Of a stretch of DNA of 64,000 nucleotides, positions 21,420 through 64,000 are shown one piece after another. The stretch is from assembly GCA_001875425.1 (NCBI GenBank), contig MIYU01000016.1, forward strand, positions 1 to 64,000. The letters are read 5' to 3'. Under the pieces are notes generated by a model, which was not told the DNA's origin, did not search any database, and saw only the letters and a program-made list of their open reading frames with translations. The position numbers were made by a program, and so were the translations under genes. Source of the stretch: Marine Group III euryarchaeote CG-Bathy1 (GTDB lineage Archaea > Thermoplasmatota > Poseidoniia > MGIII > CG-Epi1). How positions within the stretch are numbered: the first letter of the stretch is position 1; the number at the start of each line of letters is the position of its first letter.

Positions 21420-22016
21420 CTATCTTGATTTATTGTAGATTGAAGCTTTTTCAAGAAAATTAGTAAATATTTCTATACCGTATTCTGAATGTTCGACCTC
21501 TGGATGAAATTGAACACCCGCATATGGTAATGATTCGTGTTCCATCACCTGTATTGAGCAATCTTTTGATGAAGCAAGAACTTCAAAGGAATCGGGAAGT
21601 TTCGTAACTTCATCATTATGAGATTCCCAAACTTTGAATTCTGATGGCAGACTTGAAAGAAGCCAACCATTCTTTTTGACTGATAATGACACTTCACCGA
21701 ATTCGGGTATTGTGGCTGGTCCGGCCTCTCCACCAAAATGAGCAGCCATGTATTGATGACCTACACATATTCCTAAAATTGGCCAGATTTCGGAATTGAG
21801 ATATTCAGAAGTTAAACCTAATGAATCTGCTTCTGTACCTATTCTAGGTGCACCTCCAGAAAGAACAAGAGCTTCAAATTTTTCTAAATCATTCAAAGGA
21901 GATGTATTGGGAACAATCTCAGCTTTACAGCCGAGATACGTTAGGACTCGCCATTCTTTATGAGTCCATTGACCGCCATTATCAACAACTGCAACATTCA
22001 TAGAAGGATGAGTCAC
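21420..22016 (-). CDS. guaAA: GMP synthase subunit A (glutamine amidotransferase)
   Basis: ILGICVGHQYMAAHFGGE nucleophile motif; GVQFHPEVEHSEYGIEIFTNFL. Confidence 0.88.
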   Translation of the reverse strand: MTHPSMNVAVVDNGGQWTHKEWRVLTYLGCKAEIVPNTSPLNDLEKFEALVLSGGAPRIGTEADSLGLTSEYLNSEIWPILGICVGHQYMAAHFGGEAGPATIPEFGEVSLSVKKNGWLLSSLPSEFKVWESHNDEVTKLPDSFEVLASSKDCSIQVMEHESLPYAGVQFHPEVEHSEYGIEIFTNFLEKASIYNKSR

Positions 22017-61061: not shown

Positions 61062-62114
61062 ATGAGCAAAAGACGCTCACGCGGTATGATTCTGCCTAGA
61101 ATAGTTATTTCTGGACCTGGATCTATCGAAGATATACCTATTGTAATATCTGAACTTTCTCTTCCTGAAAATGGACTCATAATATGTGATGAGATTACAT
61201 ATGATATAGCTGGAAAACGGGTTAAAGATTATATTGAAGAATCTGAACGAAAAGTAGAAGTTGTCAAGATTAAAGGAGCTAGAATTGAAGAATTGGAAAA
61301 GGTAGAACGTAATATTGAAAAATATGGATTTTTAGTTGGAATAGGAGGGGGACGTCCGATAGATATTGCAAAAAAAGCAGGATATAATGCCAACTTGCCG
61401 TTTTTGAGTGTCCCAACATCTGCTTCGCATGATGGTCTTGCCTCTGAAAGATCATCAATAAGAAATAAGGGAGCTAAAGTATCAATGCAAGCTAAACCCC
61501 CTCTTGCAGTCATAGCAGATACTGAAATAATATCGAAAGCTCCGAAAAGATTGTTACGAGCAGGATGTGGAGACATTCTAAGCAATAGAACGGCAGTACT
61601 TGATTGGAAAATAGGAAAGGAGCAAGGAGAAAAATATAGTGAATATGCAGCTGCATTATCAGATATGACGGCAGAACTTGTAGAAAAAGAAGCAAAATTA
61701 ATTTCATCTGGAGAAGAAGAAGGAGTTAGGCTTATCGTAAAAGCATTGATATCTTCTGGAGTGGCTATGTCCATAGCGGGGACTTCTAGACCTGCCAGTG
61801 GAGGAGAACACAAATTCTCTCATTGGCTTGATGCGAATTATGATAGACCTGCACTTCATGGAGAACAATGTGGCATAGGTTCTATTGTTACTATGTATTT
61901 ACATAACGGAAATTGGAAGAAAATTAAAGAAACTCTTAGAATAATAGGAGCACCTACGACCGCAAAGGAGATTGGTCTATCAGATGAGATAGCATTGAAG
62001 GCATTCAAGAATGCACGTACAATAAGGCCTGAAAGAGTAACTATATTGGATTTAGAGTCTGATGAAAGAATAGAAAAAGCTGCTCTTGAAACAGGCGTTA
62101 TAGAATTAGAGTAA
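61062..62114 (+). CDS. egsA: sn-glycerol-1-phosphate dehydrogenase
   Basis: VGIGGGRPIDIAKKAGYNANLPFLSVPTSASHDGLASERSS and GGEHKFSHWLD..HGEQCGIGSI. Confidence 0.92.
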   Translation: MSKRRSRGMILPRIVISGPGSIEDIPIVISELSLPENGLIICDEITYDIAGKRVKDYIEESERKVEVVKIKGARIEELEKVERNIEKYGFLVGIGGGRPIDIAKKAGYNANLPFLSVPTSASHDGLASERSSIRNKGAKVSMQAKPPLAVIADTEIISKAPKRLLRAGCGDILSNRTAVLDWKIGKEQGEKYSEYAAALSDMTAELVEKEAKLISSGEEEGVRLIVKALISSGVAMSIAGTSRPASGGEHKFSHWLDANYDRPALHGEQCGIGSIVTMYLHNGNWKKIKETLRIIGAPTTAKEIGLSDEIALKAFKNARTIRPERVTILDLESDERIEKAALETGVIELE

Positions 62115-62186: not shown

Positions 62187-62879
62187 ATGAAAGAAGAATT
62201 TGTTAAAGAATTAGACGATGCTATTGCAAAACACGCCCTATTAGATCATCCGTTCTATCAGATGTGGAATAAAGGAGAATTACCTATGGATGCATTAAAA
62301 GAATACTCAAAACAGTACTATTCACATGTACGTGTTTTTCCAAGATATTTAGGCGCATGTTATGCACAGTGTGATGACATAGAAGTTAGACAATTGCTCT
62401 TAGAAAATATGTGTGAAGAAGATATGGGAGAAAAAAATCATCCTGAACTATGGTTGAGATTTGTAGAAGGACTAGGTGTTTCACGAGACGAGGCAAAAAA
62501 TTCAACACCGCTTTCGAAAACTGTTGAATCAGTTGAAACTATGAAAGAACTGACGAATAGTGAAAATTACCTCGAAGGAGTTGCAGCCCTATATGCCTAT
62601 GAATCGCAAGTACCTGAAGTTGCTGAAACGAAGAGAAGGGGTTTGGCTAAATTTTACAATTTAGATGATGCTCGAGCAGTAGAATTTTTCACAGTTCATG
62701 AAGAAGCAGATTTAATACATCGTAAAGTTGAACAAGACATATTAGTTGAAGGGTGTAAAGATGAAGAGAGTCGTAAGCAGATTATCGACGCAGCAGAATC
62801 GGCAGCAAAGGCCCTCTATGGATTTTTAGATGGTGTTTATGATGCTTACATAGATCCGTCTAAATGTTGTAATAATTAG
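62187..62879 (+). CDS. CADD-family (TENA/PqqC-like) protein, putative pABA synthase
   Basis: HPFYQMWNKGELPMDALKEYSKQYYSHV; metal-ligand pattern E78/H85, E139, H171/D175/H178; YESQVPEVAETK. Confidence 0.85.
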   Translation: MKEEFVKELDDAIAKHALLDHPFYQMWNKGELPMDALKEYSKQYYSHVRVFPRYLGACYAQCDDIEVRQLLLENMCEEDMGEKNHPELWLRFVEGLGVSRDEAKNSTPLSKTVESVETMKELTNSENYLEGVAALYAYESQVPEVAETKRRGLAKFYNLDDARAVEFFTVHEEADLIHRKVEQDILVEGCKDEESRKQIIDAAESAAKALYGFLDGVYDAYIDPSKCCNN

Positions 62880-62887
62880 ATTAAAGA

Positions 62888-63079
62888 TCAGTGAGTGTGC
62901 ATATCACTACCGCAGCACATTGGTGATTTGATTTTTCCACAACCATCTGGACATTTTGAGACATCGACCGATGTACCGTCATCTTTTGTAAGTGTTGAGT
63001 GAACTAACTCTTTACCACATGAACCACATGTTAAACCATGGACAGACATGTCGCAATTATGACAAACGTATTTTACCAT
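62888..63079 (-). CDS. Small zinc-ribbon protein
   Basis: 63 aa with CHNC, CGSC, CPDGC and MCCGSDMHTH Cys/His motifs. Confidence 0.7.
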   Translation of the reverse strand: MVKYVCHNCDMSVHGLTCGSCGKELVHSTLTKDDGTSVDVSKCPDGCGKIKSPMCCGSDMHTH

Positions 63080-63131: not shown

Positions 63132-64000
63132 CTATTTTTCGGAAGCTTCTGCTTCCGGTTCTTCTGCTTCCGGTTCTTCTGCTTCCGGTTCTTCTGCTTC
63201 CGGTTCAGAAGGCACATCAGATAGTCTTTCAATCAATTCTGCTTTTTTACCCGAAATAGGCAAACCCCTTTCCTTTAGAAGATCCTTTAACTCAGAAACT
63301 TTCATAGATGAATAATCTAATTCTTCTTTAGTTTCTTCTTTTGGCGATTGAGTTTCTGTTGCCTCTTCTTTATTATCCAATAATTTTTCAAGTTCTTCTT
63401 CGTTTGGAGGATTCTCCATCAATTGTGAAGGGTTTAGAACTTCAATTTTATTAACTTCGAAACGCCTTATAGGATGAATAGATTTAACTGATTTTGCAAT
63501 TTCTTTAGATAAATCTCCTGAAAAGATTCTTTTGAGTGAAACATCTAGAGTAGTAGAAGAAATGGTGTCTGTTATAATTTTTTGAGCGTTTAGATTCATA
63601 TCACGCATAGTCGATCTCTGTAGTTTTTTATCAATAATCATTATAGGCTTGATTCTGAGAGAAATTCCATCTTTAGTTTCTATAATGAAGTTTGAACTTA
63701 ACTTACATTGTTGACGTCTAGTTAATGAACGTAGATAATCTGTAGTAAGATGGTGACCGATATAATTTGTAAATGCATTTAGCCCTCTGACTTCAGTTAT
63801 TCTAAATTTGAGCATGAAATGCTTTTGAGAATAGCCTCCAGATAACATATGTAAAGGTGCTTGAGTAGTTCTACCTGGGACTGTATCTGGGATATCTGAA
63901 GGAGTTTGGCCTATGATGGCATAATTGAACATTCTCGGTGCATGTAATGAATACCAAGATTTAGATTTCCATCTATCTTTTGCTTTTCTGGACGAACTTG
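63132..64000 (-). CDS. rps3ae: 30S ribosomal protein S3Ae with C-terminal SAP domain (N-terminus beyond window)
   Basis: Open frame continues upstream of the listed Met to the window edge (SSRKAKDRWKSKSWYSLHAPRMFNYAIIG); S3Ae core; SAP motif SSMKVSELKDLLKERGLPISGKKAELIERLSD. Confidence 0.88.
   Translation of the reverse strand, partial: SSSRKAKDRWKSKSWYSLHAPRMFNYAIIGQTPSDIPDTVPGRTTQAPLHMLSGGYSQKHFMLKFRITEVRGLNAFTNYIGHHLTTDYLRSLTRRQQCKLSSNFIIETKDGISLRIKPIMIIDKKLQRSTMRDMNLNAQKIITDTISSTTLDVSLKRIFSGDLSKEIAKSVKSIHPIRRFEVNKIEVLNPSQLMENPPNEEELEKLLDNKEEATETQSPKEETKEELDYSSMKVSELKDLLKERGLPISGKKAELIERLSDVPSEPEAEEPEAEEPEAEEPEAEASEK
63147..63206. repeat. Four perfect 15-bp tandem repeats (ttctgcttccggttc)
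   Basis: Direct reading; encodes (EPEAE)n in the S3Ae tail. Confidence 0.95.

What the first reader, a model, noticed from the sequence alone, without database searches (positions are those of the whole stretch)
62187..62879. Archaeal CADD-family protein with all catalytic residues of the self-sacrificing pABA synthase
The sequence shows Y24 (HPFYQ), E78-x6-H85, Y138-E139, K149 and H171-x3-D175-x2-H178. From memory of Chlamydia trachomatis CADD/CT610, its di-metal ligands and key residues are Y27, E81, H88, Y141, E142, K152, H174, D178 and H181. The archaeal residues match these at a constant -3 offset. CADD makes p-aminobenzoate from its own tyrosine, with a lysine as proposed amino donor. 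This predicts a chorismate-independent pABA route in a free-living archaeon, feeding folate or a related pterin cofactor.
Basis: partly seen in the sequence, partly recalled or inferred. Interest (0 to 1): 0.66.

Follow-up and report, generated by a model that had tools for sequence, protein, structure and literature searches.

The report
Archaeal self-sacrificing pABA synthase (CADD family)
A marine archaeon carries a single-use enzyme, known so far from a few bacteria, that cuts up its own tyrosine and lysine to make the folate building block p-aminobenzoate; its close relatives lack the usual route to that compound and carry either this enzyme or, at the same place in the genome, a membrane transporter.

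Summary
Confirmed. Window 62187-62879 (+) encodes a 230-aa CADD-family protein: TIGR04305 268 bits (cut-off 200), 1rcw/CT610 E=2.7e-53, NePabS E=1.5e-45, AlphaFold model within 1.5 Å of 1rcw. All six metal ligands and both sacrificial residues (Y24, K149) sit at the constant -3 offset. Other heme-oxygenase-like paralogues in related archaea keep the metal ligands but lack Tyr and Lys, so these residues are diagnostic. The genome is a Marine Group III (MGIII) archaeon. None of 21 MGIII genomes has any chorismate-binding (PabB/TrpE) protein, 13 have dihydropteroate synthase, and none has an above-threshold β-RFAP synthase: folate made without chorismate-derived pABA. Marine Group II relatives use a canonical fused PabAB next to PabC. 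New here: only 3 of 21 MGIII genomes have CADD. In every genome where the locus is resolved, the egsA-rpS3Ae interval holds either CADD or one orthologous sodium/solute symporter, never both, and the state changed at least twice within one genus. I infer make-or-import of pABA, with the symporter as candidate importer (unproven). Caveat: the DHPS fragment in this window's own bin lies on a contig that looks like contamination. Enzyme: new member of a known kind. No biochemistry was done.

The parts
62187..62879 (+). CADD-family self-sacrificing pABA synthase, 230 aa
   Evidence: TIGR04305 268 bits; 1rcw E 2.7e-53, 9pj4 E 1.5e-45; model TM 0.89/0.95, rmsd 1.5 to 1rcw
62256..62258 (+). codon of Y24, sacrificial tyrosine (CADD Y27, NePabS Y25)
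   Evidence: Y in 101 of 101 aligned CADD-type proteins
62631..62633 (+). codon of K149, sacrificial lysine (CADD K152, NePabS K159)
   Evidence: K in 100 of 101; absent from other paralogues
62418..62441 (+). metal ligands E78 and H85
62598..62603 (+). Y138 (metal-adjacent tyrosine, CADD Y141) and metal ligand E139
   Evidence: role from PMC11965152
62685..62687 (+). F167 (CADD Y170, NePabS F177), metal-selectivity position
   Evidence: role from PMC11965152
62697..62720 (+). metal ligands H171, D175, H178
61089..62114 (+). egsA, sn-glycerol-1-phosphate dehydrogenase, co-directional upstream neighbour; one border of the exchange slot
   Evidence: conserved next to CADD in G000, G015, G031; name from my own reading of the sequence
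63132..63932 (-). ribosomal protein S3Ae with C-terminal SAP-like domain; other border of the exchange slot
   Evidence: conserved in 12 MGIII loci; name from my own reading
62888..63079 (-). 63-aa zinc-ribbon-like protein between CADD and S3Ae, not found in the other MGIII loci

Best explanation
The gene encodes a heme-oxygenase-fold dimetal oxygenase that makes p-aminobenzoate once per molecule. By analogy with the two characterised enzymes, O2 reacts with the metal pair held by E78, H85, E139, H171, D175 and H178; a radical passes through aromatic residues (Y138 and others) to Y24; the side chain of Y24 is cut off at C-alpha/C-beta, leaving glycine; O2 supplies the carboxylate oxygens; and K149 gives its amino group. 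The product feeds dihydropteroate synthase and folate in an archaeal family that has no chorismate-to-pABA enzyme. Shown here: sequence, residues, fold, absence of PabB across the family, presence of DHPS in close relatives. Inferred: activity, the radical path, metal choice (probably Fe/Fe or Mn/Fe, because Y138/F167 matches the cambialistic F148Y variant of NePabS), and the destination of the pABA in this particular species.
For: TIGR04305 268 bits against cut-off 200. 1rcw, 8va9 and 9pj4 are the top solved relatives. All ligands plus Y24 and K149 conserved. Paralogues that keep the ligands lack both Y and K. AlphaFold pLDDT 93, 1.5 A to 1rcw. PF00425 in 0/21 MGIII genomes, including three at least 90% complete, but in 109/125 sampled Marine Group II genomes and all 14 controls. 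DHPS in 13/21, including G015 and G031, which both carry CADD. No above-cut-off beta-RFAP synthase. CADD lies next to a DHPS gene in some bacterial relatives (L095, L164). NePabS complements a pabABC mutant, and Y25 and K159 are the consumed residues (PMC11965152).
Against: No activity was measured. The only DHPS hit in the window's own bin (C13:3-146, cut by the contig edge) sits on a contig 92-98% identical to genome G003, while window genes are about 60% identical to that genus, so it is probably contamination; DHPS is thus not shown for this species. The bin is only 79% complete. HPPK, DHFR, chorismate synthase and folate-dependent enzymes were not searched. CADD is not next to folate genes here. 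18 of 21 family genomes have no detected CADD.
Confidence: 0.85

Rival explanations
1. It is a CADD-fold oxygenase with all residues kept but mainly another job (a different substrate or a regulatory role), pABA being minor.
For: No activity data; low in vitro turnover of the characterised enzymes and a second role of the Chlamydia protein are reported (PMC11965152); CADD is found in only 3 of 21 MGIII genomes.
Against: Tyr and Lys are spent in the reaction and have no other known reason to be invariant; paralogues with other jobs lost them. The family needs a pABA source.
Confidence: 0.1
2. The gene is a foreign or binning artefact and not a working part of this archaeon.
For: The bin has 5% contamination and at least one contig from another genus. 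Nearest homologues are bacterial.
Against: It sits inside a 91.8-kb contig between archaeal egsA and S3Ae, in the same order as in two independently binned MGIII genomes. Its G+C (36.7%) matches its neighbours, and the gene is intact.
Confidence: 0.02
3. The CADD/symporter exchange between egsA and S3Ae is a variable slot with no functional link; the symporter carries something unrelated such as an amino acid, pantothenate or another acid.
For: The symporter's best curated match is panF, below cut-off. The wider anti-correlation with PF00425 is clustered by clade and could reflect general auxotrophy. Marine Group II homologues are only about 38% identical and sit elsewhere.
Against: Exactly one of the two genes is present in every resolved slot, and the state changed at least twice within genus g2 against linked and unlinked markers. 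All SSS-bearing MGIII genomes lack PabB and CADD, and most keep DHPS, so they need a pABA source.
Confidence: 0.55

Closest known systems
CADD / CT610 of Chlamydia trachomatis (PDB 1rcw, 8va9)
   Same: Fold (1.5 A, 38-39% identity), six ligands, Tyr27/Lys152 equivalents, Tyr141 equivalent
   Different: Phe at the Tyr170 position; not in a folate gene cluster; archaeal, planktonic host (lifestyle inferred from its relatives)
NePabS / NE1434 of Nitrosomonas europaea (PDB 9pj4)
   Same: Ligands, Tyr25/Lys159 equivalents, Phe177 equivalent; not clustered with folate genes
   Different: Tyr138 in place of Phe148; lacks the extra loop of about 9-10 residues after query residue 59
CADD-type proteins of other Thermoplasmatota (families f6 and f39) and of Dehalococcoidia, Marinimicrobia, Myxococcales, cyanobacteria
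   Same: Y24/K149/Y138/F167 pattern
   Different: The f6 archaeal proteins form a separate clade; MGIII proteins fall among bacterial ones with weak support
Canonical PabAB + PabC of Marine Group II archaea (L193, L199-L201)
   Same: Supplies the same product
   Different: Unrelated enzymes using chorismate; present in 109/125 sampled relatives and absent from MGIII

Membership tests
CADD family / self-sacrificing pABA synthase (TIGR04305) | Score over the curated NCBIfam cut-off | tested here: met
   268 bits, cut-off 200, residues 5-219
CADD family / self-sacrificing pABA synthase (TIGR04305) | Six dimetal ligands (3 His, 3 carboxylates) | tested here: met
   E78, H85, E139, H171, D175, H178
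CADD family / self-sacrificing pABA synthase (TIGR04305) | Sacrificial tyrosine | tested here: met
   Y24 aligns with CADD Y27 and NePabS Y25 without gaps
CADD family / self-sacrificing pABA synthase (TIGR04305) | Sacrificial lysine | tested here: met
   K149 aligns with K152 and K159
CADD family / self-sacrificing pABA synthase (TIGR04305) | Heme-oxygenase-like fold closest to 1rcw | tested here: met
   Foldseek rank 1, E 8.9e-16, rmsd 1.5
CADD family / self-sacrificing pABA synthase (TIGR04305) | Genome needs pABA but lacks PabA/PabB/PabC | tested here: inconclusive
   PabB absent in 21/21 family genomes; PabA and PabC not searched across genomes; DHPS in 13/21, but own-bin DHPS fragment is on a suspect contig
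CADD family / self-sacrificing pABA synthase (TIGR04305) | Makes pABA from its own Tyr and Lys with metal, O2 and reductant | not testable with these tools
   Needs expression and mass spectrometry
PqqC (TIGR02111) | Score over cut-off | tested here: not met
   55 bits, cut-off 240
TenA thiaminase II (TIGR04306) | Score over cut-off | tested here: not met
   28 bits, cut-off 130
BesC (NF042919) | Score over cut-off | tested here: not met
   38 bits, cut-off 500
PanF sodium/pantothenate symporter (for the alternative gene in the slot) | Score over cut-off | tested here: not met
   159 and 137 bits, cut-off 328

The most novel reading that the evidence does not exclude
The MGIII ancestor carried both genes between egsA and S3Ae, and its descendants each kept one: CADD to make pABA with O2, or the sodium/solute symporter to import it. 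The symporter would then be a dedicated pABA importer, and the locus a natural make-or-import switch for a folate precursor in ocean archaea.
Probability: 0.35. Interest if true: 0.75.

Novelty: new member of a known kind. Interest (0 to 1): 0.55.

Why it matters
The source of pABA is an acknowledged gap: many genomes with all other folate genes lack pab genes and are marked 'pABA source?' (PMC6593275). Here one archaeal family without any chorismate-using pABA enzyme splits into lineages with a pABA-making suicide enzyme and lineages with a symporter at the same locus. This gives direct, cheap tests of both the archaeal enzyme and a candidate pABA importer. The archaeal enzyme also carries the Tyr/Phe metal-site pair found in 96 of 101 aligned relatives, whereas the two characterised enzymes have the rare Tyr/Tyr and Phe/Phe pairs.

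Tried and rejected
Methanopterin as destination: no above-cut-off beta-RFAP synthase in the family; weak hits cover only part of the profile at 18-32 bits. Viral origin: no relative in viral contigs with the single-sequence query. The window's glutaminase-like ORF at 21420-22016 as PabA: it matches only the amidotransferase part at 30% over 114 aa and reads like a separate GMP-synthase glutaminase subunit. Symporter replacing PabAB at its own locus in Marine Group II: not so, it lies elsewhere. DHPS, PabAB, egsA or S3Ae beside symporter homologues in other Thermoplasmatota: none in the fetched stretches. Literature searches for CADD in archaea and for a pABA transporter of this symporter family found nothing relevant; two primary CADD papers are not held.

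Full report
OBSERVATION. The ORF at 62187-62879 (+) is real, intact and 230 aa long. It scores 268 bits to the NCBI model for the CADD family (cut-off 200) and falls far below the cut-offs of PqqC, BesC and TenA. The best solved relatives are CT610/CADD (1rcw, E 2.7e-53; 8va9) and the Nitrosomonas 4-aminobenzoate synthase (9pj4, E 1.5e-45). An AlphaFold model from an alignment of 24 proteins has mean pLDDT 93 and superposes on 1rcw at 1.5 A, TM 0.89/0.95.

WHAT DISTINGUISHES IT. Other proteins of the same fold in related archaea keep the six metal ligands in nearly all cases but have Phe, Ile or Val at position 24 and Leu, Ile or Tyr at 149, whereas the CADD-type proteins have Tyr and Lys. Across 101 aligned CADD-type proteins, Y24 is invariant and K149 is kept in 100; the exception, L042, has also lost H85 and D175. 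In NePabS the corresponding Y25 and K159 are the residues consumed, shown by mutagenesis and peptide mass spectrometry, and the gene rescues an E. coli pabABC mutant (PMC11965152). The lysine is therefore an established donor in the characterised enzymes, not only a proposed one.

METAL CHOICE. In PMC11965152 the residues at CADD 141 and 170 set the metal preference: Tyr/Tyr in Chlamydia (Mn/Fe), Phe/Phe in NePabS (Fe/Fe), and the F148Y variant of NePabS was active with either. The archaeal protein has Y138/F167, the same combination as that variant, and so do 96 of 101 aligned relatives (the sample leans to near relatives of the query). I predict a cambialistic enzyme; this is inference.

HOST AND PATHWAY. 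The genome belongs to Marine Group III: the contig of the same-family genome G015 that holds its CADD has the length (17,899) and content of JAKURS010000013.1, titled Candidatus Poseidoniia archaeon, MGIII-9. In all 21 genomes of the family there is no chorismate-binding protein at all (neither PabB nor TrpE), while all 14 control genomes ring. Marine Group II genomes of the same class have it in 109 of 125 sampled, as a protein of about 755 aa that reads as fused PabB-PabA (PIKGT motif; top model TIGR01824, below its strict cut-off) next to a class-IV aminotransferase, which I take as PabC. DHPS is found in 13 of 21 MGIII genomes, including both other CADD carriers, and in 358 of 390 genomes of the phylum. 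Beta-RFAP synthase gives no match over its cut-off. The pathway therefore looks like folate with pABA that does not come from chorismate.

CAVEAT ON THE OWN BIN. The single DHPS hit of the window's genome is a fragment at the edge of contig C13. The genes on C13 are 92-98% identical to G003 of another genus, whereas window-contig genes are only about 50-65% identical to that genus. With 5% estimated contamination the likeliest reading is a foreign contig. DHPS for the window's own species is therefore expected from relatives, not shown.

EXCHANGE WITH A SYMPORTER. CADD is found in only 3 of 21 family genomes: G000 (this window, genus g1), G015 and G031 (genus g2). In all three the order is FKBP-egsA-CADD-S3Ae. 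In G001, G023 and G029 (g2) and in G005, G007, G017, G019, G021 and G038 (g3) the same interval holds a sodium/solute symporter gene; G037 has it beside egsA on a contig that ends there. Orthologues of this symporter are found in 13 MGIII genomes and in none of the three CADD genomes. Linked and unlinked marker trees both place G031 with G001 and G015 with G023 and G029, so the state changed at least twice inside g2. CADD and symporter divergences are close to those of the flanking genes. CADD follows egsA on its strand, the symporter follows S3Ae on the opposite strand, and the slot is 869-1120 bp with CADD and about 1671 bp with the symporter. The simplest history I see is an ancestor with both genes and repeated loss of one or the other; recombination between populations would give the same picture.

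READING OF THE EXCHANGE. Because both kinds of genome lack PabB and commonly keep DHPS, I propose that the symporter imports pABA or a near precursor. Supporting at a distance: in 390 genomes of the phylum none of the 41 with a strong symporter homologue has a chorismate-binding protein, against 214 with one (Fisher at genus level p about 5e-6), and all seven symporter-bearing Marine Group II genomes lack PabAB. These counts are clustered by clade, the outer homologues are only 37-48% identical, and the loss of aromatic pathways may go with many transporters, so this is a lead and not a proof. No pABA transporter of this family turned up in the paper library.

ORIGIN. MGIII CADD proteins fall among bacterial ones (Dehalococcoidia, Marinimicrobia, Planctomycetota and others), with weak support, and apart from a second archaeal clade in family f6 of the same phylum. 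Acquisition from marine bacteria followed by vertical descent within MGIII fits. In two bacterial relatives (L095, L164) CADD lies beside a DHPS gene, which supports the folate role.

VERDICT. The enzyme is a new archaeal member of a known kind. The less expected part is its repeated exchange with a symporter at one locus, which gives a concrete, testable candidate for a pABA importer.

Noticed in passing
L055 11142-12584; L068 8415-9872 (slot egsA-S3Ae in MGIII genomes without CADD): Sodium/solute symporter (panF-like, below cut-off) occupies the interval that holds CADD in the window; never both in one genome.
   Followed up: yes
G000 contig C13 (L059), not in the window: Contig is 92-98% identical to genome G003 of another genus; the bin of this window is probably chimeric.
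   Followed up: partly
L193, L199, L200, L201 (Marine Group II): Fused PabB-PabA of about 755 aa next to a PabC-like aminotransferase; present in 109/125 sampled MGII genomes, not detected in genera g9 and g13 of family f3.
   Followed up: partly
L042 (G260, family f6): CADD homologue that lost H85, K149 and D175 (C, M, G); looks like a catalytically dead member.
   Followed up: no
L043-L054 (families f6, f27 and others): Further heme-oxygenase-like paralogues in Thermoplasmatota with metal ligands but no sacrificial Tyr/Lys; functions unknown.
   Followed up: no
101 aligned CADD-type proteins: 96 have Tyr/Phe at the metal-selectivity pair; the two characterised enzymes have the rare Tyr/Tyr and Phe/Phe pairs.
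   Followed up: partly
window 63132-63400: Ribosomal protein S3Ae ends in a SAP-like domain followed by tandem EAEEP repeats; the SAP-like domain recurs in other MGIII genomes.
   Followed up: no
window 62888-63079 (-): 63-aa zinc-ribbon-like ORF wedged between CADD and S3Ae, not found in the other MGIII loci examined.
   Followed up: no
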